A DNA stretch of 64,000 nt, taken from assembly GCA_002900995.3 (NCBI GenBank), contig CM035306.1:2948100-3012099 (forward strand). The letters run 5' to 3'. The position numbers and the translations under genes are program-made. This document shows, piece by piece, positions 17,274 to 54,071 of this stretch (its first letter is position 1; the number at the start of each line of letters is the position of its first letter). Below the pieces are notes generated by a model that saw nothing but the letters and a program-made list of their open reading frames with translations, was not told the DNA's origin and searched no databases. Origin of the DNA: Ganoderma boninense (Eukaryota > Basidiomycota > Agaricomycetes > Polyporales > Polyporaceae).

Positions 17274-19009
17274 ATGGTCGACCCCCTTACAGTGGGCTGG
17301 TGCGTATTTAAACTCGGGGTATGCTGCAATCGGTCCATCCCTCTAACGCCATTCAACTTCAAACCAGGGTCCTGTCCTTTCGAGAGAATAATTACTTGTC
17401 TGTGGCGGCATTCAGTACGTCCATTCTCGGCTTTCCTCAGCACACCCTCTTTCACACCATACAACAGCCCTTCTGTACTATGATTTTGCCTTGACATTCA
17501 CAGATGAAGTGAATCACTTCTGGAAGTCAGCAAGCTTTTCTGTATTCTCAACCCTCTTCGTCCTGAACCGATACCTCGGTCTGATCGGGACGATCCCTAT
17601 CGTCGTCGAATACTTCGCCGACATACCTGAGACTGTGAGCGGCCCCTCTTCCTCTCCAAGGAAGCGCGATGTTGACACCCACATGTCTTCTAGTCGTACG
17701 GTCACTCCTCGCGCTAGCAGTTTGACCGTGCTTAAGCTGTCCGTTACCCCATCTACCCAGCTGCCGTCTGCTACAGTTATATCATCAAGTCTTCTCGATG
17801 GCGATACAGGGTGTTGTAGCGAGCAAGTCTTGTGTTTTCTCAGGATGCAGTGGTTTGACACGGCTTCTAGGTATGTTGATCCTTCGCACGTACGCCTTGT
17901 ATGAAAGGAACAAGGCGGTTCTTGTACTCCTCGTGATCACGTTCATCGGAGCCGCCATCGCCTGCTTGGTAAGGACCATTCTATCCGCGTCAAGCATATG
18001 ATTCCAAATCGTTTGCATCTCCAGGCCGCAATGCTACTCAACAGTCCTGCGGAGAACACTTCCAGCACTATACCTGTTCGAGATCCTCCGAACCAGTGCG
18101 ATCTCTCTCTGACTACCACGCAGTGAGTGTGTTCTGTCCCTGGGCCTCTCACAGTTGTCCCTTATCTGACTGTGGCCCAGAGCGATCCGTACGTCAGATT
18201 TCGCATTCGCACAAAGCAAGCACGTAAACTTTGATACCCTCCTCTCTCTCAATAGGCTTTTCCATTGGGTGGGGTGCAATGCTCTGGTTTGACGCCACCG
18301 TATTTCTCTTAACATTAGTCCGGGCATTGCGAACGCACAATCGACTATCGGGTGGTATCCTGGAGGTTCTACTTCGAGATGGTAAGCCGAGACCGTCGCA
18401 ACTTCCTCTTGCCGTGAAAAATTGAATGCAGGGCCAGGTACAATTTACTTCGGGTGAGTCAACTCCCATCGTGAGAGAATCCTCTTGATTCTGATCAGTT
18501 GAGACGGTAGCATCATGGTGGTTTTGAATGTTTCGAACATAATCACATTTCTGGTAAGCCCGAACACCGTGAGCGAGCACACATGGACTCACGACTGACC
18601 CCGAATTTCAGGCGGTACCGGTAGGTGCCACGGCCTATTAAGCCAAACTGCGAACATGTCTCATAAGGTCCGAACAGGTGGGTTCGAAGAAGGGGATTGA
18701 AACCACACTCGTCAACGGGTAAGCACGTGTTCCCACCTCTAACATGATCTACCTGTACCAATTTTTGACAGGTTATCAACTACCCTCGCCTCCCGTCTCT
18801 TCCTCAATCTGCGCGATCTTTCATCGCCACGCTGGCATCGTCATGAGGACGAGGAGAGTGATGTCGCAAGGCATTGGAGTTCGAACCCTGCTGTCCCGGA
18901 CATGTCGTTCTTAGTATTCGCCACTCAACCTGGCGTCTCGACTGGCTTCGATGCCACCGGAACACGAGGTGTTGGTCATCCAGATGGGCGAGATGTGCAC
19001 GAAGCTTGA
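17274..19009 (+). CDS. DUF6533 multi-pass membrane protein, copy 1
   Basis: Predicted polytopic membrane protein of unknown function, 326 residues. Exons: 17274-17299, 17368-17414, 17468-17634, 17694-17695 (two nucleotides, TC), 17761-17822, 17871-17968, 18025-18122, 18181-18188 (8 nt), 18256-18381, 18438-18453 (16 nt), 18511-18553, 18612-18620 (9 nt), 18678-18718, 18772-19009. The start MVDPLTVGW and the DUF6533 core LLYYDFALTFTDEVNHFW, STLFVLNRYLGLIG are clear. Then come LYHQVFSMAIQGVVA, LILRTYALYERNK, GWGAMLWFDATVFLLTLVRA, IMVVLNVSNIITFL and SRLFLNLRDL. About six or seven hydrophobic helices are followed by a soluble tail. The intron at 17823-17870 begins with GCAAGT, a GC-AG intron. Exon lengths match the four other copies, and the frame closes without a stop. 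Confidence 0.85.
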
Positions 19010-20819
19010 AGGACCAGGTGAGAGGACCGCCACTTTGCCACGATCTTATGAGAGGTGTAATTGCATGTCTAACCCCTGTATCCCCAGGTTCGCTGTATTG
19101 TATTTCATCAAATCCACTCCAATAATCTGGCATTCGTTCTCTTACTCTTCCACCGACCATCTGCTTCGCATTATTCCGGAAGGATCTACTTGTAATTCCG
19201 ACGTCCACGAGCAATCAACATTCCTTTCAAATGCTCCCCCGAACCGACCTACGGCTCAGCTGTGGACTATAATTACTTCAATCATCGTCACGATTCGCTC
19301 CTGTGGAGACTGATTTTCGAACCATCATCTGCCATGGAGAAAGCTAAGGTGGATAAGATGTGTTTCAGCCCTCCAGGCGTGGAACAGCTATTTCTCCTTT
19401 CATTGCGGATAGGAACAAATCTGACGGTATCATTTTACCGCCACTCGAAGGGCTTCTCCACTCATTGCGTTAGCTCAGACTTCAAGGCGAGATCACTTGG
19501 ATAGTGCATCGATATACCACATCGGCCTAGCAGGCGAGAGAAGACACCTCGAATCCTCGGGGAGCTCTGGCAGGTCGATATCTGTAAACTCCGCGAAGCC
19601 TTCTTGAGCGTCCAGATTCGGAGCGTTGCTCTGCGTGGCGTGCCAGCGTCGTCTTTGAGTTTATTCCTTCCGGCTCCTGTCAAACAAGCATGGAACCGTA
19701 CCTCGAGGCCACCGTGGCCTCTTCCCCGGATAAGTCTGTTGCGACTTCACATCGCGGTGAGCGGTTCACAGTGCTAAACCCAACGTTACGCCGCTGACTG
19801 ATTTTTGCCGAAGTCGACTGTCGATGTGAAGACGCGGGAGGCTGCTGCGAGTCCAAATCCGTCGCCCGGCGTCGCCGTCCGCCAAGGATGCTGTGGGAGA
19901 TACGGTGCCTATCAAGTACAACGTCTACTCCGCCGTCAGAGCACTGTCATTGGCGCGAGCCTGGGCGGATGATCAGCCCACGTTCATTGTGGCCTTTCCC
20001 ACACCTCGGCCGAGACGATATAGATCTTGCGTCGTGGGTATGGACCTGCCAGTCCCCCCATCTATCCTCCCCTACTATGGCTCCATGGGAAGTGAAAGAA
20101 CTCTCATTGCGCGAGCTCTACAATGCGCATTTCAGGAGCTGCGCCTTTGAAATTTGGTACATGTACTTACACCCATCTCTTGTCACAGAATATCTAATTT
20201 TCAGAGCCAAATTCTGGCTAGGAAGAGCCTCGGATGTGTTCCGGTGGTCAGAGTGCTTTTTCACCATGTAGTGAAAGAAATGATGGGGCGGTGGTCACCG
20301 CCGGTCACAACGGCATGTTCATACTCCGCCTCGGCAGTCCCGTTGAGAGCGAATCGCGGACGCTGCCTCCCATCGCGAAGCTCGCCTGTAAACTATTAAT
20401 ACTTCTCGCTTGTCACCCCGCCATCGTCTGCAGTCACGCTCTTGCTCAACATTGTTCGGTATGGTACTTTGTGGTCATCTTCCAGCAAATCGGGTAGCAC
20501 ATTTACATATATTATATGCTGTATATCTCTGCGAGGGAAATTCGAGGGCATTGGCTTGGAACTTGACCGCAGATCTGACCATCAATGCGCAGAACGATGC
20601 TTACATTGAACAGGAAAACATACCTTTGTCGAAATTCCTCAGCCCACAACGATCTACACCACTTGAAACTTCCAAGAACCAATCTCTACATTATTCATCA
20701 CCAATCTACGAAGTATGGTGCTACCAGGTAGAATACGTCAATGGATATCTCCATTTTTCACTTGCTATGGGACTTTTCACTTCCCATGGAGCCTTAGTAC
20801 GGCAGGCGTCGGCTTCTCC
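19010..20819. other. intergenic region between DUF6533 copies 1 and 2
   Basis: 1.8 kb with scattered open frames (for example 19888-20271) that show no domain and no exon pattern like the flanking genes. I looked for DUF6533 core words (YYDxALT, YHQ, MLWFD) and did not find them. A decayed gene cannot be excluded. Confidence 0.4.
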
Positions 20820-22535
20820 ATGGCTCGCTTCACGGGGGCGGTCCAGGCGGCCGCGGAGTATTGGTACGTCCTTCTTCTCATGTAGTTTATGCCATTCCTT
20901 CATAACCTGACAGGATGTCGATTCCAGGGCTTGGTCTATTCGGATGAATAATTACTTTGCGGCGGTTGGATATGGTGAGACTTGCAGTGCATACCTCTGA
21001 AACCATTGCGTTTTGAGCAGGACGATCAGCGATCTTGTTCTACGACTACACATTGACGTTCTCGACCGAGGTGGAATGCTTTTGGAAGTCGACCCACGTC
21101 TCCTTGTTCTCTGTTTTATTCGTGCTCAACCGCTACTTCGGCCTCCTGGGAGCCATCCCCACCATCTTCGAGTACTTTGGTAGCCCTTCTGAGCATGTGA
21201 GTGCTTCTGGCACACACCTCAGTGACATAACCACACTGACAAGGCGAGGGTGTAGAAGTAGCCACCATCTTTCTGCACTGCAATTATGTATCATCGAAAA
21301 GTGACTCACACAGCCATCTGTGTAGTTGTCGTAATCTCCAAACCTATCACCAAGCGTTCGCCATAGCTGGTCAAGGGATCATTGCGAGTAGGTCGGCGCT
21401 TTAGTGAGCTCTCCCCTGCCTTATGATCGCCGCTAACACGCCTGTAGTCATGCTAGTCCTCCGCACATACGCTCTGTACGAACGGAGCAGACGGATCCTG
21501 ATGCTTCTCATCGTAACGCATGTAGGAGGCGCTCTCGCTGCCTTGGTACGTACTACCCACGTCTGGTTGATGAGTGCTCGGCTGTGATGCGACTGACGGC
21601 CAGGTCGCGATGATTACCACGAAGAGCGCGACCAAAACCAAGATTTCGATGCCTTTTACTCTCCCCGAATGCGATCTTTCCCTTACCGATGCGCAGTGAG
21701 TTCATCCTCCCGCGTTTCTGTAGCTTGATTGAATCTTAGGTGTCATGGAAACAGGGGGCTTCGTGCGTTATTTCCCCATCTCTACCGCCGCCTGCAGCGG
21801 AAAATAAACCTGACGCTTCCTAGACATCGCCATCGCATGGGCCGCAATGCTGTGGTTCGACACCACGATTTTCGTATTGACGCTGGTGCGGGCATGGCAG
21901 ATGCACCGTCACATGCGGGGCGGGGTCCTCGAGACGCTATTTCGTGATGGTTAGCCGCGCTCCGTTTTCATGCTCACGTGCCCACCGTATTAATTGCATC
22001 GACATATCCTGTCCAGGGACCATTTACTATGGGTTAGTTTTTTAACCACCTTCGATTTGCCTGCCGAGATTCATGCCCGTCGCAAGAATCATGGTTGTCT
22101 CCACGGTGGGGAATATGATTACCTTCGTGGCAACGCCGGTACGCAACTCGCAGCATTACTTTCGCGAGGCTCCAATGATTTAAAGATCACGCACAGTCCG
22201 GTTCAAACCTCAAGGGCATGGAGACGACCCTTACCAATGCGTCTGTACACCGCTAACTTCCGAATATTGGACCGACAACGCTAATGTGCACTTGCAGGCT
22301 GTCGACTACGCTCACGTCGCGGGTCATCTTGAACCTCCGGGACCGGACTGCACACCATATCGGCGGAGGCAGGAACACGCGTACCCAAGTTTGGACCTCG
22401 ACCGCTGCGCAGTCCATCGTTTCCCGTGTGGTTTTCGGCAAGGAGCAGCTCAGACCTTTGGAGTCCTTCGAATTGGCTTCTAGTACAGCGGCGGGCTCCG
22501 CAACGCAGACGGGAGACCCATGGACAATGGACTAA
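20820..22535 (+). CDS. DUF6533 multi-pass membrane protein, copy 2
   Basis: 331 residues. Exons: 20820-20863, 20928-20974, 21030-21196, 21256-21257 (two nucleotides, AA), 21326-21387, 21448-21545, 21604-21695, 21755-21762 (8 nt), 21824-21949, 22017-22032 (16 nt), 22087-22138, 22197-22240, 22298-22535. The N-terminus is MARFTGAVQAAAEYW, followed by ILFYDYTLTFSTEVECFW, FVLNRYFGLLG, CRNLQTYHQAFAIAGQGIIA, MLVLRTYALYERSRR, HIAIAWAAMLWFDTTIFVL and SRVILNLRD. The exon at 22087-22138 is 52 nt, exactly 43+9: the intron that separates a 9-nt micro-exon in the four other copies has been lost precisely here. The intron after 21387 uses a normal GT donor, unlike copies 1 and 3. The start of exon 3 could also be 21021, adding three residues. 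Confidence 0.85.
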
Positions 22536-22739
22536 CACCCAGGAACTGTGATGGTCTAGCTCCGACAGGACTATCCTCTGCCATACAGCTGTCATAATAC
22601 TACACACAGATAGTTCCGAACGTTACTGCCTTATTTCTTGTATTGTACCCGTGTAGGTAGACCGTCCTCCCCCCACGCACCAAGGTCATTTATCGTCTGC
22701 CCTGGGAGACAACCGTGTAGGCGAGTTCGAGACTCCGTC

Positions 22740-24478
22740 TCATCCCCAGAGATGCAAGTGCTGCTTGATGGGGCCACCCACGTACCGCTCGCCCTTGACT
22801 TCGTTCCTGGCGAGGATGTCCGCGATTGCGTCCTGCTCCTCTTGCGTGAGCTCGATGTTGCAGGTAAGGCAGTTCTCCACGACCCGCTCCGGTTTCCTAT
22901 GGATATTCGGCGATCCAGTCAGCCGTGTAACGACCGCGCACACGCTTGGAAGCAGAGACGTACGAGGACCCCGGCAGGGGGATGACATGCGGGCCGCGGG
23001 ATGCGACCCACGCAAGCGCGAGCTGTGGGAGGGAGATCTGCTTCTTACTGGCAATCACTTTGATCTCCTCCAGGATAGCCTGGTTGTGCTTCATGGTCTG
23101 TGGCGGGCGATCAGGAAAACAAGTCCAGGACGAATTGGCGAGGAAATCTGACCTCTTCCTGGAAGCGATCGAAGGTTCGACGGAAGTCCTTCTCCGCAAG
23201 GTCGTTGGGGTTGCTGATGGTGCCGGTCAACAGCCCTCTACCCAGAGGCCTGACAGGTGCCAGCGGCGTCGGTCAGTGTAGGTGGATGCAGGCAAGGTGA
23301 CTAGTCTTACGAGTACGCGATGACAGGAATGCCAAGCTCTGCAGAAGTTGCGATCACTGCGGTATATGTTAAGTTACCGTTCAGAACGCCATCGTAAGAC
23401 CAGCTGAGTTGCTAATACGTGGTCGTGCTTACCGTTCTTGGTTTCCTCTTCGTAAGACCATAAACTAACCTCGATCTCGACAGCAGCAATCCGGTGAATC
23501 TGCAAATGCGTCTAATCAGCTCCACCGTAGGATGCGATTGACATCGGACACACCTCGTTCGCCCTGCGCAGCGTTTCAGCACGACACTCGGACATGCCGA
23601 TGTGGTCGAATTTGCCCTCGTTCTTCAGCTGGACGAGGGTCTGCATCATCTCCTCAAGCGGGACCTTAGGGTCAACGCGGGCCATCTCGAACAGGTCGAC
23701 TCTCTTCGTCCCACGAAGGCGATGACGGTGTCCAGGCTGCGGCGCAGGTTCTCCTTTCTGCCCACGTCCGTCTTCTGTGAGCTCGTCTTGCAAAAAGGAG
23801 AGGAATAGAAACCACTTACGAGCCGTCAATCATGATCGTGCCCGGCTTGGTACCTCCCTGTGAAGAGAGAGCTGGTGAGCACGTTCCATTGGTTGGCCTG
23901 TCTGGCACTAGCACCCACCTTGACGGAAAGGAAAGTCTTGTCCACATAATCCGGGTACTTCTCGTAGAACCGAGAAAGCACTTCGAGGTTCTCAGTACTA
24001 AATCTGGGCCCATAGAACTCGGCTGAAAGACGCGTCAGGAAAAGTCGGAACACCACCTTCGCAACATGAAAGGCAAATCTTACCGCTGTTTAGAAACATC
24101 TTCACCCCAGGGGGCATCAGGTCGACGCCGGCTCTAATTGCCGCGAAAACGGCCTCGTCCTCTAGCATAGTGTCTTCGGTGTGGCCGCTGTCACCATGTA
24201 TATGCATCAGTGCATACAGCGCGGGCAAAATGCATGATTAAATAAAGGCGTACGCGACTGTCATCAGGCCGTGCTGACATACGGGAACAGTGCTTAGGCG
24301 AATATTCGCCGAGAGCTTACGACCTGCGAGGGGCCGGTGGGACAGTGACGGCAAAGGCGAGTGAAGCGCCAAACCTGGTGTCGAGAGCTGGCCACGAGAT
24401 CAAAGGATGTCCTGTGATCAATGGCTGAGAGTCTCTCAGGCTGGATAGCAGGCCTGGTTCCTTCTGGGTCATCATCAT
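22740..24478 (-). CDS. aldo/keto reductase 2, paralogue of AKR 1, with an apparent frameshift
   Basis: Same family and exon plan as AKR 1: [153 protein letters not shown], then a C-terminus ending KQHLHLWG. Every junction splices in frame except near 23709-23716, where the block ending AFVG and the block starting TKRVDLF lie in different frames. One base appears to be missing inside an exon, and no intron can fit there. The N-terminus is weakly conserved (an ATG triplet at 24470-24478 is the best start; FGASLAFAVTV replaces [10 protein letters not shown]). This is either a young pseudogene or a sequencing error. Confidence 0.7.
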
Positions 24479-24893
24479 GATGGGGTTTCCGACGTTGCAG
24501 TAGGGAACTTGGAAAGAGAGGAGCGTGTTTGCTGCGGAGTTGAAGTGTCTGCAGGAGCGGTACTAGTTGTGGCAGGTTGTGGCAGAGACGACGGAGGCTG
24601 AAGTGGTGGCTAAGTATAACGCCGCGTACAAGGCAGTAGCACCGACTCGGAGCTGCGGGAAGCGCGATCGGGCACTGTGAGTCTGTGGCAGCGCAGTGCC
24701 CTGGCGTCTATTTGCCCGATCAGGCCACTTCTAGCGCCGCCAGCCAATCAGCGCGCGGGTGCACGTGGGCAGCGCGACGGGAGAGGTACTGTCGGCCAGG
24801 GTCTGAATTCACTTGGCTAAGGCTCGGTCTTTGCTGCCTTCCCCTCTCCTCGCTTGTGTTTCTCTTTCTTCTGGGGACTCCGCTCCGTGCACA
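24479..24893. other. promoter region of the syntaxin gene and AKR 2
   Basis: 415 bp between divergent starts. It is GC-rich, includes CCAATCAG (24744-24751, a CCAAT-box-like motif on the plus strand about 145 nt before the syntaxin ATG), and contains no reading frame of note. Confidence 0.4.
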
Positions 24894-26282
24894 ATGCAGC
24901 GCGACAGGCTAGCTGCCTACAGGGTCCGTTCCATCTCCTCTGTCCCCGTACACGCTCTCGGCTGACGAGCACTCCCCTTTGCCACTCCTGCAATCCAGCA
25001 GCAGCACCAGGCCCAACAGCCGGCCCATGAAATGACCACCCTCGGAGGCGGCAACGGCTACGGTGCCCCTCAATCTCCTGCCGATGGCAATGGGAGTGCT
25101 GATGCCATGGCAAATTTCTACAATCAAGTACGCACTTCTCTCGCTTCTTCCAATCGCGAACCCATACCCTATATGTACCACCCTCGCTCACAGGCTTGCT
25201 AACGATAAGATATGCGCTATTAGGTCACTGCCGTGCAAGGCGACATCGCCCTGTTCAACAACAACGTCTCTCGCATAGCCACCCTCCATTCTCGCACTCT
25301 CGAGATCACAGATGAGGCCACGAGCAGTCAGAGCTCTGCAGAACTAGACGAATTGGTCGGCAAAACTCGCCAACTGAGCAACGACTTGAAGGAGAAGATT
25401 CAGTCCCTTTCCTCCTTCCCCGTCACTCGTCCACAGGACCAGGCAATTCGCAAGAACCAGGTTCGTCCACAAGTCACTGCCTTTCCGCTCTAGAATGTCC
25501 CGCCGACCACTCGCAATGCATAGACCTCGCTTCTGCGCCAGAAGTTCGTAGAGGTCCTCCAAGCATACCAGGGTGTGGAGCGGGAATACCGTCAAAAGTA
25601 TCGGCAACGCGTCGAGCGTCAGTTCAAAATCGGTGAGCATCGCCTGCCTGCCATCCTCCGTGCACCATTCTCACACAAAGCGCAGTCAAACCGGATGCAT
25701 CCCCTGAGGAGATTGCTGCAGTAGTGAACGACACGGGCTCTGGGAATCAAATCTTCACACAAGCGGTATACAGCATTCAATTTCAACGCACTTGCCACAA
25801 GCTCACAGCGCGTCGTTAGCTTTCGACGTCAACAAGGTATGGCGAATCCCGGATAATGTATCGCGAGGTCCAGGATCGCCATCATGATATTCAAAATATT
25901 GAGCGAACGCTGGAAGAGCTAGCTCAGTTATTCAATGACGTACGTACCCCCCTTCATAGGGCATTCACCGGACGCCACCGCTGAACAGGTCCACCCTCCA
26001 AGATGTCTGTCCTGGTGGCACAACAGGACGAAGCCATTGACGTCATCCAGACGACAGCCGTTGATGTGGAGGCCAACACTCGTATTGGGTACGTGCGTAT
26101 GTCTATCCTTCTCCATCTTCCGTATTAAACACTCTTCCCGTAGTTTGCAGGAGACAGAGAAGGCCGTGGAGCACGCACGCTCTGCACGGCGCAAACGCTG
26201 GATCTGTTTCGGCATCATCGTCCTTGTCCTCGCCATCGTCGCCATCGTCCTCGGTATCGTCTTTGGTACCAAGAAGAGCTAA
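24894..26282 (+). CDS. plasma-membrane syntaxin (Sso1/2-like Qa-SNARE)
   Basis: Target-membrane SNARE for exocytosis. The spliced protein of about 310 residues starts MQRDRLAAYR, the standard opening of fungal Sso proteins; exon 1 is only 30 nt. The N-terminal three-helix Habc region is visible (FYNQVTAVQGDIALFNNNV; ELVGKTRQLSNDLKEKI; VLQAYQGVEREYRQKYRQRV, with the sequence ERQFKIVKPDAS at the linker). The SNARE helix follows (IQNIERTLEELAQLFND, MSVLVAQQDEAIDVIQ, with the zero-layer Gln). The polybasic ARRKRW leads into a C-terminal anchor (IIVLVLAIVAIVLGIVFG) and a KKS end. About seven short introns. It runs divergent from AKR 2. All expected elements are present. Confidence 0.93.
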
Positions 26283-26881
26283 CTCCGCCCACTCTACTCG
26301 CAATTTGAAGTTGACGTCCCGTCCAGACTGCTTTTGTCTGGTCATTTTTATTAAGTATCACGACCTGGACGATTCTCATGCACGAGACGCTTTCCTCCAT
26401 TGGCTCACCTGGCTTCTCGCTCCGCCAGTGCTACTTCAGCCAGGGCTCTGCGCTATGTTTGTGCTTCTGGATAACGACACGACCAGTTTCCTTGTAGTAT
26501 TATGTCTACTAGCGCGTATGCCATGTCTCCTCACTATACCACTGGCCATACTACGCTTTAATCTTTGCTCTATTGATTTCCTTAATAGACCAATCTATTA
26601 ACCGGCTTGTATCCTCTGGATTGTTTAGTATGTCATAACGACGATCGACGGATTTTGGAGCACGCACTGAACGTTGCCGGTACCACAGGACATGGCAGGC
26701 GCGCGGCATCTGCATATTCTGGGCGTCAAGCCAAAAGACAAACAGCCATGACCGGCATGAGCTCGACAACATCGACGTTCCGCCCCAACAGTCTCTTTCG
26801 TTCCATCCAGAGCGGGGACTGGAGCCACGGCTCTTTTTGGCAGGCTTCTTCGCTGCTCTACTCCCCACCACCCAAGTCACA
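26283..26881. other. intergenic, syntaxin 3' flank and kynureninase promoter
   Basis: 599 bp between two genes on the same strand. T-rich near 26440-26600, consistent with a 3' UTR. I recognise no gene or RNA. Confidence 0.45.
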
Positions 26882-28728
26882 ATGAGCGATCTCGTGCCGG
26901 ACAACTTCAAGCTCGCGCCCTCGGAGGACCCCTTGCGAGCATTCCGCGATGAGTTCATCATTCCAACCTTCCGTCAAATGAACGCGACTGCCGTCCCAGC
27001 GGAGTCCGGTACGTGCTCACAGTGGCCTAACGTCTCCGTCTGCTCGACGCTCACGCTCGCGATCGCCCGCCCTCCCGACGCCGCCGCCGCACAACCTGCG
27101 ACGCACTTCCCTCTGCCGCGGATCGTACGCCTTATGGCCGGCCGGCGGCGTCGTTGTGGATCGTAGCGGACGAGCCCTGCACGTACCTATGTGGAAACTC
27201 GCTTGGCTTGTTGCCGAGGCGCGCGAAGAAGCTCGTGCAGGAAGAGCTCGAGGTCTGGGGCACGAGGTGCGCATCCGTTCAGCCGCCTTCGCGTCTTGTC
27301 CGACGTGACGTGCAGCACACATCGGCCCTCGCTGAGCGTGCATGCGTCTGGACTCTGTAGGGCGGTGGAGGGACACTTTGACCACCCGCATGGCCGGAGC
27401 TGGATGTACATCGCGGACACCGTGCATCCGTTCTTTGCAGAGCTCGTAGGTATGTACGCCGCACTTAGCCGTGCCCTGGAAGAAGAGGATCAGCATTAAA
27501 CTTGCGCATCCTCGTATCTTTGCAGGCGCGAGCGAGTCCGAGGTCGCGTGCATGGGCACGCTGACGGCGAACCTGCACCTCATGCTCAACGCGTTCTACA
27601 AGCCCACGAAGGAGCGCTACAAGATCCTCTGCGAAGCCAGGGCGTTCCCTTCCGACCAGGCAGGCCTCTTCCCATCCATCCACTTTGACGCATAGAGTGC
27701 TCACAGGCCGCTCTCTCTCTCAGTATGCATTCGCGACCCAAGTCGCCTCGCGCGGCTTCGACCCCGCCGACGCGGTCCTCGAGCTCCACCCGCGCCCAGG
27801 CGAGCACACCCTCCGCCCGGCAGACATCCTCGCGACGATCGAGCGCGACGGCCCGCAAATCGCGCTCGTCCTCTTCTCGGGCGTCCAGTTCTACACCGGG
27901 CAGTACTTCCCGATCCCGCAGATCACCGCCGCGGCGCGCGCGCAGGGCTGCGTCTGCGGGTGGGACCTCGCGCACGCCGTCGGCAACGTGCCGCTGTCGC
28001 TGCACGCGTGGGGCGTCGACTTCGCCGTCTGGTGCACGTACAAGTACCTCAACTCGGGCCCGGGCGGCATTGGAGGCTTGTTCGTGCACGAACGCTGGGC
28101 AGACGACCTCCCCGTCGGCCAGGCGGGCTGGTGGGGCCACGACCCCGCGACGCGCTTCGACATGCCCCCGCGCTTCCGTGCGATCCGTGGGGCGCAGGGG
28201 TTCCAGCAGAGCAATCCATCTGTGCTCGCGACGGTGTCGCTCCTGGGGTCGCTGCAGGTGTTCAAGGAGGCCGGTGGTATGGAGCGGCTCCGGGCACGGT
28301 CGGAGAGGCTGACCGGGTACCTGGAGGCGTTGCTGAAGCGCAGCAGATTCTATGCGGAAGCGGGGGAGGCGTTCGAGAAGGGCAAAGACGAGGTCAAGGT
28401 GGCCATTATCACCCCTTCGGATCCTGCGGAACGCGGCGCGCAGCTCTCGCTCGTCTTCCTTCCGACTGCGCGGGGTATCATGCCGAGGGTGCTCAAGGGT
28501 CTCGAGGCTCGCGGTGTCGTGGGCGATTCGAGAAAGCCGGACGTTATCCGGCTTGCGCCCGCGCCGTTGTACAACACCTTCGAGGATGTGGAGCGAGCTG
28601 TCGAGATGTTGAATGAGGTCCTTGCAGAGGTCGAAAAGGAGGGCGTGCCACCTGCGCCCTCAGAGATCGGATCTGTGGAAGGTGCAAGTTTGGAGTCGTT
28701 GGACAAGGAAGATATTATAGATGCATAG
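26882..28728 (+). CDS. BNA5: kynureninase (L-kynurenine hydrolase)
   Basis: PLP enzyme that cleaves 3-hydroxykynurenine or kynurenine to (3-hydroxy)anthranilate and alanine in the tryptophan-to-NAD pathway. The N-terminus [20 protein letters not shown] is followed after an intron by [18 protein letters not shown] (substrate region), [29 protein letters not shown], then a long exon with [20 protein letters not shown] (WDxAH, PLP-ring aspartate) and [20 protein letters not shown], where the Lys of YKYLN forms the internal aldimine. AGWWGHD and [18 protein letters not shown] complete the active site. Five exons, roughly 490 residues, with an acidic tail beyond the usual end. It is convergent with a kynurenine-formamidase-like gene 315 bp away, so two consecutive pathway steps are adjacent. 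Confidence 0.93.
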
Positions 28729-44418: not shown

Positions 44419-46037
44419 GGGGCGTTGGGGGCTGAGGAGGGCGAAAAGGCTGTAGGACGACCTGAGGGTCCCGGGAGGGTGGAAGAAGAGAAGATATGAG
44501 CCGACAAGGGCTGCGATGAGGAAGAGGAGCGGTCTGGTGGGTGAAGGAGCCAGCTTGATCCCTATTGGTGCTGGGAGCGTTATCTGATTCTGCGTGGTAA
44601 CAGACGTGGGGAGGTCGTCAGCGGGCAGGACGTCGAGGCTGTAGCAGAGGTGTGGGTGGCGGAAAGCAGAGGCCAAGCAGACCGAGCAATTCGGCGCATG
44701 GCCAGTGCCCGATGCGATGAACGGAAGCATACGGAGGTCTCGACCGATGGAAATGTTACCATACCGCACTCCTCCGCACTCACACTACCCTTTTCGTTAT
44801 GGCGTAGAATGGCAGTACTCACTGTTGATTGTACATCCGCTATTCGCGTGTGGTTATGTATCGTCCTGCAGCTGACAGAGAGTGGCGCACAGATGGCCGT
44901 GTAGGCGCTCGGATGTCACTGAACAGACGCTGGAACTGCTTGTTGCCAAAAGTCCGAAGATCTGCCAGAGCCAGCTGTGCCCCTCCGCCGGTGCGCACCC
45001 ATCCTCGTCCCTTGATCCCAGGAGAGCTCTGCGAATTATCTCCTCAGAGGGACATATGCAGCCCTAACTTGCAGATCGTCTCACGAAAATCCTCCAGCCG
45101 ACGGCCGGCAGCCCGCTCGCAGGTGTCGGAGATGCTTCGTACATATGGTTTATTTGATCTTGCTCAATCATGTCGCCAATGCGGCAGCACTTTGTCTGCA
45201 GCTGGACTCAATGCCTTCTCGTGCATACGAGGCCTCTCCCACAGGCTTCACGCTCATGGCGAGTTCTATCATCCACTGTCATGTCCAAGAAGGCCTCTGA
45301 CTCACGGATCTAAGTTCTCCAGCAGCGCCCCCGCGGTTCGGCTGGCGTCCCTAACGACACAGTGGCAGATGCTCCCTCACGAACCCGCCAGTGGCCACAT
45401 TCCGCATCGCTGCTTCCGCAAATCACCCGGAAACCCCGCAATGTGCTCATCTTTTGGTGGCGAGTCTGAGATGCAAAGACTAGTCGTATTTTAGAGCGGT
45501 TATCTAAGACACAGACAGAGCTCAGCCATCTCTGCCAGATCATGTGGGTGCGATGGAGGTGCAGCACAAGGACGTTTGCACCACTACCCATCGTGCAGCA
45601 CCGCATTCGGATGCTCCACCTGACTTGGACTCGCTTGCCATTGCTCTGCCATTGCTCGGAAGACGAGTTGACGCCGTATGTGACATGTGACGCCCGCCCT
45701 CCTGCGCCTCCAACGTTACTCCGTCGCTCGTAGCTGTGCGAAGGCACTGGCTGTCAGCGAGCGGCCGCTCGAGTTGCACCTCTCTACTTACACAGCGCAC
45801 TGGCGCATGCTACGGACGATGGCGTAAGCTTTCGTATGAACATCCGCTCCTTCCGTGTCGAGATGAAGATATCATCCGATCGCGGCCCCCACATCAACGA
45901 GGATCCGTTGCGCGCCCGCTTGGCATATCATCTCCCGGACGACATTTATGTAGGTTCCAAATCTCGCGTATGTACGTCGGCCGATCGACAACCCACTCCC
46001 TCCCATTTCCTCCCAATCTGGGGGCGGTCGCCTTCAA
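44419..46037. other. intergenic region before DUF6533 copy 3
   Basis: 1.6 kb. The longest frame (44829-45494, plus strand) reads as Arg/Ser/Cys-rich random sequence. No repeat family, tRNA or relic of the neighbours found. The part up to about 44770 may include the true 5' end of the unknown gene described before it. Confidence 0.4.
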
Positions 46038-47750
46038 ATGTCCTCGGTAGTGTCGCAATCCGTCCGGGATGCGGCAGAGTATTGGTGAGGTCGCTCGCTC
46101 CTGTCATTCTTGTCTCGCTTATAACCTTGTTTGATCCTGTAGGGCTTCGACTGTACGGACAAACAGCTACGTAACGGCGGTGGCCTTCAGTAGGTCGTGT
46201 GCTCGTTGGCCACCACAATGAGCGCTAATGCAGTTCCACCCACAGCGATCCTGTACTACGACTTTGCCCTCACGGCGGTCTCGGAAATTGAGTTCTTCTG
46301 GACCTCCGCCAACTGGTCTATCATCTCAGTGCTGTTCGTTGTCAATCGCTACCTTGGACTTGTTGGGACTGTGCCACTGGCTTTCGAATACTTTGGCACG
46401 CCGTCAGAACATGTGAAATCTTTTCTAGCTGTGTCTTGTGACGGTGGCTGATACATCTTAATCCTAGACGTAAATAATCCTGTCGAGGTGATTCGGGCCC
46501 GAGCTGACCGCATCTTCTAATGTAGATGCCGCCAGTTGCAGACATACCACCAAGCGTTCGCGATAGCAACTCAAGCCACCGTAGCCAGCGAGTTCTTTCC
46601 ATCTGACATCCGCGATTGAAATAACGTCTCACCTCGCTCACCTAGTAATGTTGGTGATCCGCACGTACGCGTTGTATGATCGAAGCAAGCGCATTCTTGC
46701 GGTGCTCATTGTCACACATGTGGGAGGCGCGATCGGTTGTCTTGTATGGCACTTCCTTCGTTCGATGCTCCTCGCTAATTTTTGTGCAGGTCGCCATGCT
46801 TACCACCAAAAGCCCGGATGTCACCAACATTCCGTTGCCCTTTACCCCTTCCCAATGTGACCTCTCTCTCACCAACGCACAGTATGTAATTTGTTGTTTC
46901 CTTCGATGCATCCGGCGCTGACACCACGAAATCCAGAGGCCTGCGTACGTGATAAAGTACGAGCGAGGGAGGAATCCTGGCTGATATTTTCGTCTCAAGA
47001 TATCGCTTTTGCATGGATTGCGATGCTTTGGTTCGATTCAACCATTTTTACGCTCACGCTGGTTCAAACTATTCGGATGCGGCGCTACTTCCCAGGCGGC
47101 ATCCTGGAAAAGTTACTTCGAGACGGTAAGCCCCCTTGTTCTCCCGGATAAATGAGGCACTGATCTCAACGGCCGATAACCAGGCACAATTTACTTTGGG
47201 TGAGTGTAGCAAATGCCTCTCGAAGTTGTCTAAAAACTGAGCCGCGCGTTCTTGCAGAATCATGGTGGCATCAAATGTCTCAAATATCGTCACGTTCCTG
47301 GTATGCTCACATCCTATACCCTCTTCGAGCCACGGCATACTCATGACAATTCTGCACCTAGGCTACCCCGGTACGGCCTGTTTAGCATGATGACTCCCAA
47401 AGTCCTGACGTCTTTATCTCCACAAGTCCGGATCCAACCTCAAGGGCTTGGAAACGACACTCACCAACGTGTAAGTGTGATCCTAAGCCTGAACGGGATA
47501 CCGTCTTACGGTTCTATATTCCAGACTATCAACAACACTCACTTCGCGCCTGATTCTTAATCTCCGAGATCCTACCTTGAGGCGGCCGCGAAGGGCAAGC
47601 GAGACCCAATCCGCCACCGCCCTGACTTCCACAGCCGCACCACCAACGAGCTCGTACATAATGTCGACTCGATATACCATCACGCACATTGAAACGGATG
47701 GCGTGTTTACTAACACAGAAGAAGTCAGCGCAGGGTCGACGATGGTATAA
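46038..47750 (+). CDS. DUF6533 multi-pass membrane protein, copy 3
   Basis: 328 residues. Exons: 46038-46084, 46143-46189, 46246-46412, 46468-46469 (two nucleotides, AC), 46526-46587, 46646-46743, 46790-46881, 46937-46944 (8 nt), 47000-47125, 47184-47199 (16 nt), 47258-47300, 47362-47370 (9 nt), 47427-47470, 47525-47750. N-terminus MSSVVSQSVRDAAEYW, then ILYYDFALTAVSEIEFFW, FVVNRYLGLVG, CRQLQTYHQAFAIATQAT, MLVIRTYALYDRSKR, HIAFAWIAMLWFDSTIFTL, IMVASNVSNIVTFL and SRLILNLRDP. The soluble tail ends EEVSAGSTMV. The intron 46588-46645 starts GCGAGT, a GC-AG intron at the same site as in copy 1. The ATG at 46218 is inside an intron and is not the start. Confidence 0.85.
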
Positions 47751-49814
47751 GGTAGAGAATGGTGGGGTGCTGGGCATCCTGCAACATTGTTGTATGAGTA
47801 ATGACCTAGGTGGGTCTTAACTCCGTCCCGTGCGTACGCCCAGATGAGATTTGACGGTGATACTCTGGAGCCAACTGTAATAATATGTGTAATATAGTAA
47901 GTCAACGTGCCTCTTCCGACATCGCCGCTGCTGACAATCTTCGCTGTCAGTCTAATTCCATCCTGCCGCGTCGTTCTGCCACGGGCAGGACCACTTCTTG
48001 GGCGTTTCCATTGGACAGCGGGCGGTCTTACCGTAGCAACCTCTGCAGGCGGAAACATCGTGCCACCGGTTGATGCGAATATTTGTCTCTGCGGTTTAGA
48101 CTCGTGTTACCTACCGGTCCCGGTTTTGAAGCCACGTCCTGACCCAAGAATGGACTGCACTGGCTCGCAATACTGGCTTTCGCTATTGGCGTCGTGTTGG
48201 AAACCTGTTCGAATGCGTTCGAGGCTAATTGCCTGAACCTGTGCAGCGTCTTACCATCGTGTCCTCCCATCCACACGACTCTCGGACGTATTTCCATACC
48301 TGGCGATGGCGATCGATCGTCGCTGTCGAGGAAAGCCTCAAGCTTAAGGTGCGTAGCGCATTTCTTCCGCATATGACCAGAGGGGCCTGACCACCTTCAA
48401 TCGACACGCTTGTGCTCTCCCCGGCGAACCATGCACCCCTTGCACGGAGGACAGTCGTGTTCCCGACCTTGTGCATGACGGCTATAAATGTCGAACTCTT
48501 ATCCGACATCTCCTGGGCTCCCACCAGCGGCTATATTCGGGCTTATCTTCCGGTGTGGGAAGGCTTCAAATCTTCGTCGAGGAACGCGAGGTTTGTGCAG
48601 CCTCATTAAGTGGGGGGACTCGGCTGGGAGACATGTAAGTCCCGAAGCGATTGCACTCCGATGGTCGACCTGCATACCGGGCTATTCGTGACGTTGGCCT
48701 CGAGGCCGATGCTCGACCCTCGACACTCCGGCTGCAGGTAGGGGCCAGGATGGTATCGTCGTGTCGCCGACGACGGGGCATCGACGACGCCTAGTACTTT
48801 CCTTAGCTGAACATCCGGGCTATTGAGAGCGACCAATTGTGAGTCTTTGGCTCTCGTCGTACAGTTAGTAAGTTCCCCGCATCTCCCTCTATCAGCCTCG
48901 CTAATTGCTTAGTCTACACGTCGTGCGGCACGCCATAGTCCTCCTAGAGGTGCCACTTTCACAGGAACAGCTGATGTCAAGTGAAGGAGATCCCGCCATA
49001 CAATCGAACCTGCCACTCTAGCAAGCTAATCGAGGGCACGATGCGATGGCGAATCTCTTGCGGCAGCTGTCCTTCTTTTTAATGGTCATCCGCAAATTTC
49101 ACCGAAGCTCTTCATCCTTCCTGACATGTCTGGTCGGCTGACCCTACAGATTATATACATCCGGCATCTATCATCGAACATCTCGGGCCCGGCTCTGAAG
49201 AACCTTTTCATTCCAGGTCAGGTACGCCCGAAGATGAACTCCGACAGCTGCCTTTACCCATGGTCACCCCGCTCTACGTTCACACTGGCAGTTGGTCGGC
49301 AGCTGCTGTAACACAGACACATCTGACACGATGAGGCCCGAGTATGGTGAGCCCTCCATCCACCGGGCCGCCTACAGGTACCGTCATCTCTTTGCCTCGA
49401 AGGAGTTTTGACATGCGAATGGGAGTAATCGAGCATATTTCAGGCTATGGGAATAAGGTACGTCGACCGACAGCCCATGCGTTCTGCCAAGGACAAGTAA
49501 GCTCCGATAGCGGTCACCAGTGAGCATATACTCGTTCTTGTTCCAGGTGTTCTAACTACTTGGGGTTGTTCTTCTCCACGCTGGCCGTGTGGCCCTTCCC
49601 CACATGCATAGAGTGCATGTCGAATGAAAGTCAAGTAGGCTACTCAGCCTATCCACCCGCCTTCACTTCCCGCTCATCAATAGGACCTGGCCAATTGTGG
49701 ACAATGTCCATATGCCGATCACGTCTACACTCTCGACCCAGGCGCGTGGATCTTCCAGGAGTGGAGCAGTTATAACATTGGCGCTAGCCATAAGGAACCC
49801 CCACAAGCTCCAAG
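47751..49814. other. intergenic region between DUF6533 copies 3 and 4
   Basis: 2.1 kb, nothing recognised. Many short frames, none with DUF6533 words or any domain. A decayed gene is possible but not supported. Confidence 0.4.
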
Positions 49815-51526
49815 ATGACCGTCTCAGAGGTCTCAGCGGAGAATTTGTGCGTCATCATCCCCCACTCGATGCTTTCCGCAGACTGATATTGATGCATGTC
49901 TGTTACTAGCGTTTCGTCTATCCGGTTCGACACCTGCATCACGCTCGCAGCATTCAGTGAGTCCCATCTGCGACTACTTCATCTCCCCGGACGATGGCGA
50001 CTCTGTCTCGACAGCTCTGCTGTATTATGATTACGCCCTTACGGTCACGTCCGAGATTGAGTGGTACTGGAGCCCGCCTTCGCCGTCTGCACCCTTCATC
50101 CTGTTCACGGTCAGCCGGTATTTCGGTCTATTGGGACCGATCCCGGTATTTCTGGAGTATTTTGGAGGGCTCCCCGAACACGTGAGTATTGCGATCTTTC
50201 CCTTTTTTTTTGAAAAAAGGAATGGAACGCTGATTACCTCCATAGCTGTGCGTGAATGCCTGCGACGGAATGCTGGCTAGATCTCATCCTACTTTGGACC
50301 TTCAGATGTCGCGAAATACAAGTGTATCACCAAGTGTATGCGATGGCTAGCCAGGCGGTTGTCGCTGGTATGTTCCCCTCTACTCCCTACGGGCGCATAA
50401 TTTATCTAGAGACAGTATTATTAATCCTGAGGACTTATGCCCTATACAACTGCAACAAACGGGTGCTTGCGTTGCTGATTTGTATGTTCATCGGAGGAGC
50501 CGTTCAAAGCGTGGTGAGTTTCACTTGGCGCTACGTTTTCCTAATGCCCCAACGCCTCACGTAACATTGTCTAGTCGGCGGTGTTGACCAGTGAGAGCCC
50601 TTTGTCAACGGACATTGCCTTGAACTTTCCGTTCACGGAATGCAATGTTTCGCTTAACGGAAACCAGTGGGTTCATCTGTCTCTCTTCCTGCGAATTTTG
50701 TTTCAATATCTTGTGTAGGGGTGTCCGTCAGTGGTTTCCACCCCTTTCCCACTCTTGAGTGACCAATTCTGTCTTCAGATTTAGCCCTTGCATGGAGTGC
50801 AATGCTATGGTTCGACACGTCGATCTTCGCCTTGACGTTCTACAAGGCAATTCAGGTGCGGCATGACATGCCTGGAACTTTGTTGGTGACAATGTTCCGT
50901 GATGGTAAGTTAGGTGCGACACCTTATCCAGGGAGGAAATACTCAACCTCCTTGTTAGGGACGATCTATTATGGGTGGGCCCACTTCAAGTTGGCCGTCA
51001 GCCGTCTCTCACAGTGAATTGGCCCCGTAGCATCCTCATCGTCGTCAACACTCTTAACATTATCACATTCCTGGTGAGTACCTTTAGTGCGGGCCTAGAA
51101 CAGCGATGGAAGTTCAAAACTTTTCCAGATTGTGCCAGTAGGTCGCCTCGTTGGATTATCAGACTTTCCAGAAGACTGACGTCACCAGTCCGGTGATCCA
51201 CTCAAAGGAACAGCGACGACATTGACGAACGTGTAAGTGGCTCAATGTACCATGAATATTGGATTTATCTTCCAAAACATGGACGTCCTCTTAGGCTCTC
51301 GGTGACGTTGACTTCGCGCCTGATGTTGAACCTGCGCGATCCGAGCATCCAGGTTCGCAGGGCACGTGGCGGCTGCACTCAACGGCTAGAATGGTGGTCT
51401 ACTGCGCAGTTCAGTTCAAAGATCATGTCTTTTCGACGTTCCACGATGTTCAGCGATACGATGGTGACGGAGGAGCCGCGGGGAGGGTCGACAGAGGCTC
51501 AATGCATGGTTATCGAGGGGGTATGA
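49815..51526 (+). CDS. DUF6533 multi-pass membrane protein, copy 4
   Basis: 325 residues. Exons: 49815-49846, 49910-49956, 50015-50181, 50246-50247 (two nucleotides, CT), 50306-50367, 50416-50513, 50575-50666, 50719-50726 (8 nt), 50779-50904, 50959-50974 (16 nt), 51031-51073, 51129-51137 (9 nt), 51189-51232, 51295-51526. N-terminus MTVSEVSAENF, then LLYYDYALTVTSEIEWYW, FTVSRYFGLLG (the usual Asn of LNRY is Ser), CREIQVYHQVYAMASQAVVA, LILRTYALYNCNKR, HLALAWSAMLWFDTSIFAL, ILIVVNTLNIITFL, SRLMLNLRDP. The tail is Arg- and Thr-rich. All introns are GT-AG. The first of the two introns around the 2-nt exon carries an eight-T run followed by six A. Confidence 0.85.
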
Positions 51527-52351
51527 CTTCGGGGTCTTGAACAAGTGAGAGCAGGCATTTCAAAGCCGTCGATGTTGCCCTTCTTACTGACCTGTTGACT
51601 AGACAATCATGAGTTATGTATCCGTCATCCAAGTTGCCACTTAACATAACTGCAGATCCTGTACAAAAAGTCTTCCTACAATCAACCTTAGGGATTTCAC
51701 TTTGCGCTTCAAGCCTTTTCACCGTGCTTTGACCGTGCTTCTCGTTCTGTGGAAATGTGAGATGCGCAGAAGGAGCGTAGTTTGCATGTGGTGCTGCTGC
51801 ACGAAGCATCGGGCCTCGGATTTACCGACGTCCGAATGTGGCGATGCCCACACGTGGACGTGGGAGGCGAGGAGGACGAGGCTCGCAGCAGCTCGCTTAT
51901 ATGTACCCAGAAACACTTCTTCAAAGCACGAGTCAGGCGGGCTGCACGGCGGTGGGATGTTCAGTCAGGTGGGTGCTCCCCGAAGCGGTTTCAAGTCCGT
52001 CTAGGAGCCTAAAAACGGAGCCCAGGATGGAAATAGCGGTACCACACTCTCACCCAGCAGTCTGGGACTCAACGTAACAGTCCGTTTCGATTCATTGCCG
52101 TCAGAACCGAGGGATTTTGTCCTGGGAACGGCAACGATCTCACGGAGCGAAGGCCGTGACTGCTAGGTCGCCGACCCGTTCCTCGCGCGATACTGTCCGG
52201 CTCCTGAAGCTTCCGTGGATCCGCGGTACATTCTAGCGGCGACCTGGCGAAGTCGCGAGGGACGAATAAAATCCAGCTGTCCTCGTCGAAAACAGTGGTC
52301 GTCTTTCCCTCAGCCCCATGGACAACCCCCCACGCGCCTCGTCGAGCAGCC
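51527..52351. other. intergenic region between DUF6533 copies 4 and 5
   Basis: 825 bp. No gene recognised. It holds the 3' UTR of copy 4 and the promoter of copy 5. Confidence 0.45.
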
Positions 52352-54071
52352 ATGGACTCCGAGCAGCCTTCAGTCGCGACATTGTACGTCTAGCATTCTG
52401 CAATTTCAATGTCCATTTACTGAAAGAAAAACTGGTAGAGCCGCTTCAATCCGACTGAACAACATGTTGGCTATCATCGCGTGGAGTGAGTTCAGACCCA
52501 CGTGTTTGGGTTGAATATGTCGGCGCTCACACTCCACCAAGCTATATTACTCTACGATTATTGCCTCACTCTAGGCATCGAGATCGAGTACTTCTGGAAG
52601 AGAGCCAGGCTTTCCGCAGTGTCGACACTCTTCGTGCTCAATCGATATCTCACGTTGCTGGGACAAATTCCTATAATCGTCGAATACTTCGTGATTCTGC
52701 CTCCAATGGTGAGCAAGCTAATACCTATACCTATAGCAGAAACCCACTGACATTCACAATGCGTTAGCGGTTCGTTGATCCACATGACAGCCAACGTACC
52801 GTCCATTAACAAACGTAAAATCTGTTTAGCTGTCGACAACTGCAGAGGTATCACCAGTTTTACGCAGTTCTCAACCAAACAATAGTCGGTCGTACGTGCT
52901 GTCCTTTGGTTCTCCTTTATGACTCCCAACCCTTCCTCAGTCATCCTCATTTTCCGAACCTATGCCCTCTACAATCGGAACAAGAATGTGATGATAGGAC
53001 TCGTGACGTTGGGTTTAGCTCTGGTGGCCGTGAGTTCACCAAGATCTTGAGCCTTTTCCGCTTTCCGACGCTCTTTTAGGTGACCTTGATCGCTGGGAAC
53101 GCGAAAACCACAGTCTTTACCTCTAATGCACAATATGACGAGCCTTCGGCCGTCGGGTGCAACCACTCCTTAACGACGGAACAGTAAGCCCTCATTTGTT
53201 CATGAAAATCGTTGGAGCCTCACGAATATGCAGAGGTCTTCGTAAGAACCCAGTGCGATCAATCCGTTGCCCCGGAAAGTAATCTGTTGTTATAGGCAAT
53301 GCCGTCGGGTGGATCGCCATGCTCTGTATGGACACGACGATATTCATTCTCACACTCGCCAAGACCATCCGTGTGTGCAGTCACATGAACCACGGGGTAC
53401 AGAGGGTTCTATTTCGTGACGGTGAGCGTTCGCAAGTCCCCGCTGAGCCACCCAGGTTATTGATATTTTCTCAGGTGTTGTCTACTATGGGTATGTTCAT
53501 TCGAAAGTGAGACTATTAACCAGAAGATTGACACGGTGGTTAGCGTCCTGGTCACAGTGAATGCAATTAATCTCCTTACATTTATGGTGAGCTCTTGGAC
53601 TGGGACGCGATGTTTTTCACCTGCGCTAACTGATGCCCATGTAGGGACCTCATGTAAGTTATCGCATCTCCACCATGCGCTATTCCTGACCTTCTGTAGA
53701 TTGACGACACTGCAAGGGGAATGGGAACCACCATAACAAACGCGTGAGCCACGATGCTGTCCATCAAAATGCTCGCTTGCGATCACTGACAGGTTGCGGT
53801 TCCGTTGTGCAGCCTTTCCACAACGCTGATTTCCCGCATCTGCCTCAACCTCCGCGACCCAGGACTGCACTGCAGCGGCGATGGGCGCAGGACTGATGGC
53901 TTGTGGACTCCAGCGGACTCGACCACTACCACGACGGCCGGGAGGAACACCAGCCTGATGCCCAGCTTCGCTCAATATCCGGGGGCCATGACGCAGACGG
54001 TCGGGAGCGACATCGTCATCGTCTCAGTATCCCACGAGTCCACGCCGCACGATGGGCCAAATCGAGCGTGA
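52352..54071 (+). CDS. DUF6533 multi-pass membrane protein, copy 5
   Basis: 335 residues. Exons: 52352-52383, 52439-52485, 52542-52708, 52768-52769 (two nucleotides, CG), 52830-52891, 52941-53029, 53080-53183, 53234-53241 (8 nt), 53296-53421, 53475-53490 (16 nt), 53544-53586, 53645-53653 (9 nt), 53700-53743, 53813-54071. N-terminus MDSEQPSVATLAASIRLNNM, then ILLYDYCLTLGIEIEYFW, FVLNRYLTLLG, CRQLQRYHQFYAVLNQTIV, LIFRTYALYNRNKN, GWIAMLCMDTTIFILTLAK (WFD is replaced by CMD), VVYYG, SRICLNLRDPG. It is the most divergent copy: its sixth and seventh exons differ in length (89 and 104 nt), yet the frame still closes. The tail ends TPHDGPNRA. Confidence 0.85.

What the first reader, a model, noticed from the sequence alone, without database searches (positions are those of the whole stretch)
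17635..52829. A two-nucleotide exon conserved in all five DUF6533 genes
At the homologous position each copy has a phase-0 exon end, an intron of 55-64 nt, AG, two nucleotides, GT, a second intron of 56-68 nt, then an exon starting with one base plus TGY CGN. The two-base exons are TC (17694-17695), AA (21256-21257), AC (46468-46469), CT (50246-50247) and CG (52768-52769). The exon before is 167 nt and the one after is 62 nt in all five. Only with the two bases kept does the protein stay in frame into the shared block CRxLQxYHQ and on to the stop codon; total coding lengths are then 981, 996, 987, 978 and 1008 nt, all multiples of three. The bases differ between copies, so what is conserved is position and length. 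A single-nucleotide exon is known in Arabidopsis APC11, and paired introns spliced in sequence (stwintrons) are known in fungi; a 2-nt exon kept through a fungal gene family would be new to me.
Basis: partly seen in the sequence, partly recalled or inferred. Interest (0 to 1): 0.93.

Follow-up and report, generated by a model that had tools for sequence, protein, structure and literature searches.

The report
Two-letter exons in fungal membrane-protein genes
Genes of a large family of membrane proteins in a Ganoderma-like fungus appear to contain exons only two DNA letters long, with position and length kept while the letters change, so they should be an unusually good natural test of how cells find almost invisible exons.

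Summary
Confirmed, and wider than reported. All five window genes have the 2-nt exon at the stated coordinates; a general protein-to-genome aligner, given an intron-free homologue and no rule for micro-exons, finds each. Coding totals 981, 996, 987, 978 and 1008 nt are right. The arrangement is on the best path in 60 of 75 DUF6533 loci read in this genome, against 16 of 360 shuffled controls; 76 of 150 listed hits were not read. Paralogues with the first intron only (L050, L055), second only (L043) and neither (L024) exist. A second 2-nt exon lies downstream in 59 of the 75 loci, 51 having both; in the window genes it is 8 nt. Many public protein models differ at the junction, probably through annotation error. 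No RNA reads for this genome were available; RNA support is indirect. Exons of 1 nt are known; a family with two base-variable 2-nt exons per gene was not found in our full-text searches. Likely mechanism: two ordinary introns, 2 nt apart, removed one after the other.

The parts
17468..17634 (+). gene 1, exon before the 2-nt exon (167 nt, phase-0 end)
17635..17693 (+). gene 1, intron 1 of the pair (59 nt)
17694..17695 (+). gene 1, 2-nt exon TC (codon TCC, Ser)
17696..17760 (+). gene 1, intron 2 of the pair (65 nt)
17761..17822 (+). gene 1, following 62-nt exon starting C TGC CGT; the next intron starts GC
18181..18188 (+). gene 1, 8-nt exon at the place of the family's second 2-nt exon
21030..21196 (+). 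gene 2, exon before (167 nt)
21256..21257 (+). gene 2, 2-nt exon AA (codon AAT, Asn), introns of 59 and 68 nt
21326..21387 (+). gene 2, following 62-nt exon
21755..21762 (+). gene 2, 8-nt exon
46246..46412 (+). gene 3, exon before (167 nt)
46468..46469 (+). gene 3, 2-nt exon AC (codon ACA, Thr), introns of 55 and 56 nt
46526..46587 (+). gene 3, following 62-nt exon; the next intron starts GC
46937..46944 (+). gene 3, 8-nt exon
50015..50181 (+). gene 4, exon before (167 nt)
50246..50247 (+). gene 4, 2-nt exon CT (codon CTA, Leu), introns of 64 and 58 nt
50306..50367 (+). gene 4, following 62-nt exon
50719..50726 (+). gene 4, 8-nt exon
52542..52708 (+). gene 5, exon before (167 nt)
   Evidence: another path
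52768..52769 (+). gene 5, 2-nt exon CG (codon CGC, Arg), introns of 59 and 60 nt
   Evidence: another path
52830..52891 (+). gene 5, following 62-nt exon
53234..53241 (+). gene 5, 8-nt exon

Best explanation
A genuine coding exon of two nucleotides sits between two ordinary short U2-type introns. The introns lie 2 nt apart within one codon (phase 0, then phase 2), just before a conserved Cys codon of DUF6533 membrane proteins. Shown on sequence: the anatomy, its conservation across paralogues, and paralogues that lack one or both introns. Inferred: two splice sites 2 nt apart cannot both be engaged at once, so the introns are removed one after the other by intron definition. Intron 1, with the stronger donor, probably goes first; the two exonic bases then serve as positions -2 and -1 of the U1 site of intron 2. 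Selection keeps position and length (frame) and partly AG (donor pairing), while the residue itself is fairly free. Most paralogues read outside the window's branch have a second 2-nt exon further downstream, lying across two codons.
For: Spliced alignment with a reference from another species gives exactly these exons in all five genes. 60 of 75 loci have the 2-nt exon on the optimal path; shuffled controls 16 of 360. Scan blind to the frame of the middle exon: 45 of 65 choose 2 nt. Intron-loss states: L050 and its near-duplicate L055 keep only intron 1 and have a 64-nt exon (2+62) starting ACG TGC; L043 keeps only intron 2; L024 has neither and reads TCC TGC. Intron-free ORFs on short contigs have one residue there (P0116, P0061, P0047). 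Median pairwise identity of the exon 3-5 proteins of the 60 loci is 0.32, so the arrangement is old. Donor 2 is weaker than donor 1 in 49 of 60. Donor 2 is weakest when the 2-nt exon is AG (median 2.98 against 6.91, p 7e-6; one random member per 29 clusters, median one-sided p 0.0011, 90th percentile 0.0054), as expected if the two bases pair with U1. Second site: 59 of 75 loci, controls 14 of 295.
Against: No RNA reads from this genome were seen. The short-contig ORF P0116 has no close match here (best-scoring exon match 56% identity, highest 62% over 37 residues). The aligner is given a homologous protein, so residue count is part of its input; only one search is largely free of that. 31 of 360 shuffles scored as well as the real sequence. 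15 of 75 loci are not of this form on the optimal path: L024, L043, L050 and L055 are the intron-loss forms; for L014, L041, L045 and L065 the blind scan puts 2 nt first (for L045 with a different upstream donor); for L028, L029 and L068 it is possible but not first; L001, L011 (no 2-nt path, best is zero-length), L033 and L067 are unresolved or damaged. Loop length before the Cys varies between paralogues (20-23 residues in six checked), so L024 and L043 do not by themselves fix the residue count; only L050 and L055 do. A simpler donor test (-1 G against +5 G) was not significant (p 0.088; 0.63 with one per cluster). The order of splicing is inference.
Confidence: 0.92

Rival explanations
1. 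One long intron (98-157 nt) with a shifted, in-frame donor or acceptor; the AG-NN-GT inside it is not used.
For: A phase-2 donor-like GT or GC within -16..+29 nt of the exon end exists in 50 of 60 loci, with the commonest offset (-10) shared by 21 of the 50; another in-frame acceptor exists in 12 of 60. For gene 5 one alignment took another path.
Against: The alternative donor is as strong as the conserved one in only 1 of 60 loci, the alternative acceptor in 3 of 60. Offsets are spread over 12 values; the shared -10 lies, by eye, in the codons of a common Met-Ser pair and would delete three residues and part of a fourth that L050 and L055 and P0116 keep.
Confidence: 0.04
2. A complex intron of stwintron or recursive (zero-length exon) type: the inner AG-NN-GT is a stepping site and nothing is kept in the mRNA.
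For: When the 2-nt exon is AG, the sequence AGAG|GT also offers an AG directly before GT; a zero-length path exists in 41 of 60 loci. L011 has no 2-nt path and its best one is zero-length.
Against: Keeping 0 nt shifts the frame into the conserved following exon. Half of the 2-nt exons (30 of 60) are not AG. Both introns have intact splice sites of their own, so neither interrupts the other.
Confidence: 0.02
3. The 2-nt exon is real but its inclusion is regulated: skipping or retention makes unproductive mRNA and sets expression. (Not exclusive of the best explanation.)
For: In silico, a stop appears before the end of about exon 6 in 30 of 60 loci when the 2-nt exon is skipped, 49 of 60 when intron 1 is retained and 55 of 60 when intron 2 is retained. 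Donor 2 is weak.
Against: No expression data; intron retention brings stops by chance in most genes.
Confidence: 0.12
4. The two introns are removed in the order intron 2 first, intron 1 second. (A variant of the best explanation.)
For: Not excluded by sequence; the acceptor of intron 1 stays usable after intron 2 is gone.
Against: Donor 2 is the weaker donor in 49 of 60 loci, which would favour early removal of intron 1.
Confidence: 0.3

Closest known systems
1-nt exon of Fusarium CYP621A P450 genes (PMC12940212, parts 1 and 2 of 3 read)
   Same: Fungal sub-codon exon between two short introns, inferred from frame and homologues, supported there by reads; gene models broken at the site
   Different: 1 nt, one orthologous group, same base in all; here 2 nt, dozens of paralogues in one genome, bases vary, and a second site in most genes read
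1-nt exons of plant APC11 and VPS55 (PMC4674806, PMC8831610; passages read)
   Same: Conserved ultra-short exon; intronless relatives carry the base inside a larger exon; missed by annotation
   Different: One or a few copies per genome; 1 nt; plants; proved on RNA
Stwintrons of ascomycete fungi (PMC6616335 passages; PMC9024468 search listing only)
   Same: Consecutive U2 splicing reactions forced by closeness of splice signals; intron definition
   Different: There one intron interrupts a splice signal of another; here both introns are complete and two coding bases lie between
Recursive splice sites with zero-length exons (PMC5126111, search listing only; details recalled)
   Same: AG next to GT as a stepwise splicing point
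   Different: Long introns and no coding bases there; here short introns and two retained bases

Membership tests
Ultra-short (1-3 nt) coding exon | Flanked by AG upstream and GT or GC downstream with intron-sized sequence on both sides | tested here: met
   60 of 75 loci on the optimal path; introns 49-82 and 46-83 nt
Ultra-short (1-3 nt) coding exon | Needed for the reading frame; relatives lacking an intron carry the bases within a larger exon | tested here: met
   L050, L055 (2+62 = 64-nt exon), L043 (AG at the end of the upstream exon), L024 (no boundary)
Ultra-short (1-3 nt) coding exon | Present in mRNA of the gene itself | not testable with these tools
   No reads for this genome; intron-free ORFs of relatives agree
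Stwintron | An internal intron interrupts donor, branch point or acceptor of an external intron | tested here: not met
   Both introns have complete GT/GC and AG; the frame requires the two bases
Recursive splice site (zero-length exon) | No base retained between the two steps | tested here: not met
   Frame, and L050/L055, require two bases; L011 is the one locus without a 2-nt path
DUF6533 (PF20151) | Pfam match above the curated cut-off | tested here: met
   Gene 3 protein 41.2 bits against a cut-off of 24.1; P0116 55.1; P0061 33.2; genes 1, 2, 3 and 5 also hit exon-wise, gene 4 is not among its 150 rows
G-protein-coupled-receptor-like fold | Significant structural match to solved 7-helix receptors | tested here: inconclusive
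   Helical model of P0116; 1 of 871 Foldseek matches at E <= 0.001; the 50 rows shown are all receptors, TM-scores by query 0.28-0.39

The most novel reading that the evidence does not exclude
A whole family of helical membrane-protein genes, probably over a hundred in one fungal genome, carries two separate 2-nt exons per gene in most members. Both are constitutively included by obligatory consecutive splicing; position and length are fixed while the bases drift. The 75 loci read hold 119 such exons at the two sites (60 and 59); extrapolated to the 150 listed hits that is over two hundred sub-codon exons in one genome, far more than in any case I found in print.
Probability: 0.78. Interest if true: 0.9.

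Novelty: new variant of a known kind. Interest (0 to 1): 0.83.

Why it matters
Exons below 3 nt leave no room for exon definition, and how the spliceosome finds them is open. The cases I read about are single genes or groups of orthologues. Here one genome offers dozens of natural replicates at two sites, with variable bases, variable donor strength and natural absence of either intron. Order of splicing, donor compensation and the lower size limit can therefore be tested statistically from ordinary RNA-seq. It also means that public protein models of this family probably often err at these junctions, and that read aligners and gene finders should allow 2-nt exons.

Tried and rejected
Stwintron and zero-length (recursive) readings were rejected on frame and on L050/L055. 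Single-intron readings were tested on 60 loci and rejected as the general case. The short-contig ORF P0116 was tested as a transcript of a gene in this genome; no close match was found. The -1 G / +5 G donor test was not significant; the AG-versus-other comparison was. At the second site the 2-nt exon is mostly AT or TG (36 of 59), so the AG rule of site 1 does not hold there. L001, L011, L033 and L067 remained unresolved.
Full report
Setting. The window lies in an unnamed 55.6 Mb genome of 74 contigs. The closest database protein to gene 3 (46038-47750) is from Ganoderma sinense (90% identity), so this is a Ganoderma or close kin (inference). The genes are DUF6533 (PF20151) genes. The genome has 150 scored hits to this 46-residue domain out of 191 candidates, a lower bound. 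I read 75 loci: L001-L070, mostly the best-scoring hits, and the five window genes (four of them among the 150 rows). 76 listed hits were not read, so the sample is not random.

The observation. I wrote a general protein-to-genome aligner (BLOSUM62, simple donor, acceptor and branch-point weights of my own choosing, GT or GC donors, AG acceptors, no special rule for small exons). I gave it P0061, a 303-residue ORF on a 1362-base contig. In all five genes its best path contains the 2-nt exon at the stated place, with 167 nt before and 62 nt after. The full models are 981, 996, 987, 978 and 1008 nt, each with one stop at the end. Gene 3 has 14 exons of 47, 47, 167, 2, 62, 98, 92, 8, 126, 16, 43, 9, 44 and 226 nt. 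With gene 3's protein as reference, genes 1, 2 and 4 again give the 2-nt exon, but gene 5 takes a path with exons of 149 and 26 nt and none of 2 nt. So gene 5 is the least certain of the five.

How far it extends. In 60 of 75 loci the optimal path is exon 3, 2 nt, next exon; the next exon is 62 nt in 55 of these, 65 in 2, and 44, 41 or 66 in one each. When the middle of the intervening sequence was shuffled (dinucleotides kept, terminal splice signals kept), 16 of 360 runs gave a 2-nt exon at that place, and 31 of 360 scored at least as well as the real sequence. A separate scan fixed only the end of exon 3 (phase 0) and the start of the Cys exon and allowed middle-exon sizes 0-39. It put 2 nt first in 45 of 65 scorable loci; the next most frequent size was 0 nt (4 loci). 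A 2-nt path exists in 64 of 65. The exon 3-5 proteins of the 60 loci have a median pairwise identity of 0.32 and form 29 clusters at 50%.

Natural intron losses. The non-conforming loci are strong evidence. L050 and its near-duplicate L055 (one event) keep intron 1 but not intron 2; their next exon is 64 nt (2+62) and starts ACG TGC, so exactly one codon lies between intron 1 and the Cys. L043, a distant family member, keeps only intron 2: its exon ends GAA AG and the next starts A TGC. L024 has neither intron and reads GAG TCC TGC. So there are two separable intron positions, two bases apart. The loop before the Cys varies in length (20-23 residues in six loci), so L024 and L043, which lack the first boundary, do not fix the residue count. 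Which intron is older is not settled.

Other proteins. Of 255 database proteins from three searches, 80 have exactly one residue at the junction, 55 an insertion and 28 a deletion. A further 76 lack the following exon in the alignment, 15 lack the preceding one, and one is borderline. Some of the 80 are probably alignment noise. Several insertions begin VS or R plus Y or C, as read-through of GTGAGY, AG|GTAY or AG|GTGY would give. I take this as gene-model error, not as variation; it was not proved. Intron-free ORFs on short contigs, P0116 (MSAQ-I-C), P0061 (DGE-Q-C) and P0047 (SSD-Q-C), have one residue. Their source tag 'lgn' I read as Logan assemblies of sequencing runs (recalled). Because genes of this kind have a dozen or so introns, I infer that these are transcripts, but no tool says so.

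A second 2-nt exon. Extending the alignments showed, in 59 of 75 loci, another 2-nt exon between an exon of about 89 nt (phase-2 end in all 59) and, usually, one of about 130-165 nt. It is the last base of one codon plus the first of the next. All 59 are among the 66 loci of P0116 type; 51 loci have both 2-nt exons. Shuffled controls: 14 of 295 gave 2 nt, and 10 of 295 scored at least as well as the real sequence. Even L024 and L055 have it. In the five window genes and two relatives (L041, L065) the exon at this place is 8 nt; L049 has 5 nt. Flanking introns are 47-83 and 47-80 nt.

Mechanism. At site 1 the exon is AG in 30, GG in 11, GC in 5, GA in 4, and others in 10 of 60; the residue is Ser in 29, Gly in 11, Ala in 5, and nine other kinds in the remaining 15. 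The donor that follows it is weaker than the donor of intron 1 in 49 of 60 (medians 4.39 and 7.48). It is weakest when the 2-nt exon is AG (median 2.98 against 6.91, p 7e-6). Taking one random member per cluster the median one-sided p is 0.0011. A simpler test of -1 G against +5 G was not significant (p 0.088; 0.63 with one per cluster). The pattern fits the two bases acting as the exonic half of a U1 site. Two splice sites 2 nt apart cannot both be occupied (established reasoning; for stwintrons PMC6616335, passages read, likewise infers consecutive reactions and intron definition). Removal must therefore be sequential. That intron 1 goes first is inference.

The protein. The AlphaFold2 model of P0116 (mean pLDDT 74.7; 187 of 401 residues at 90 or more; residues 278-401 below 50) is helical, with seven or so membrane-length helices. 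The site 1 residue (83) precedes C84, invariant in the 51 aligned sequences, at the start of helix 81-97; nearly invariant C153 lies at a strand pair; site 2 falls, by eye, near residues 166-167, early in helix 161-192. The 50 Foldseek rows shown are all receptors, but the match is weak (best E 7.7e-4, TM by query 0.28-0.39). A receptor function is a guess.

Known background. One-nucleotide exons are reported in Arabidopsis APC11 (PMC4674806, passages), in plant APC11 and VPS55 (PMC8831610, passages) and in Fusarium CYP621A (PMC12940212, parts 1 and 2 of 3 read). [quoted passage not shown] it mentions an 8-nt exon in a Phanerochaete P450. A 2026 review (PMC13149111, passages) puts microexons at typically 3-15 nt. 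Full-text searches for two-nucleotide or 2-bp exons, stwintrons, micro-exons with Agaricomycetes, Coprinopsis, Basidiomycota or fungi, related terms and DUF6533 listed no report of this case; only open-licence papers are held. The two DUF6533 papers (PMC10949477, PMC8955403; passages found by term) showed nothing on micro-exons.

Verdict. The exon is real to a high probability on comparative grounds; direct RNA proof is missing. It is a new and much larger variant of a known kind.

Noticed in passing
59 of 75 loci, e.g. L002, L006, L008, L013, L023: A second 2-nt exon downstream of the first, lying across two codons, after an exon of about 89 nt; in the window genes the exon at this place is 8 nt.
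   Followed up: yes
46038-47750 and homologous places of the other four genes: Further very small exons in the same genes: 8 nt, 16 nt and 9 nt; gene 2 has a 52-nt exon in place of the 43- and 9-nt pair.
   Followed up: partly
L023, L035 (intron 2); L018 (intron 1, by eye); 17823 and 46588 (intron after the 62-nt exon): GC-AG introns beside or near the micro-exon.
   Followed up: no
G000 contigs C1 (about 1.00-1.21 Mb), C8, C5, C12: DUF6533 hits are numerous and clustered, 150 listed in one genome.
   Followed up: no
L011: Has AG directly followed by GT at site 1 (no 2-nt path) although it has a site 2 2-nt exon; splicing route unclear.
   Followed up: partly
L033, L001: Distant members whose structure around site 1 could not be resolved.
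   Followed up: partly
P0001-P0255: Public gene models of DUF6533 proteins often differ at this junction, e.g. the Ganoderma sinense orthologue P0001 lacks the residues around the Cys.
   Followed up: yes
P0116 model, residues 84 and 153: Helical membrane-protein model with an invariant Cys at the start of helix 81-97 and a nearly invariant one at a strand pair, resembling the conserved disulphide of many receptors (recalled); Foldseek support is weak.
   Followed up: partly
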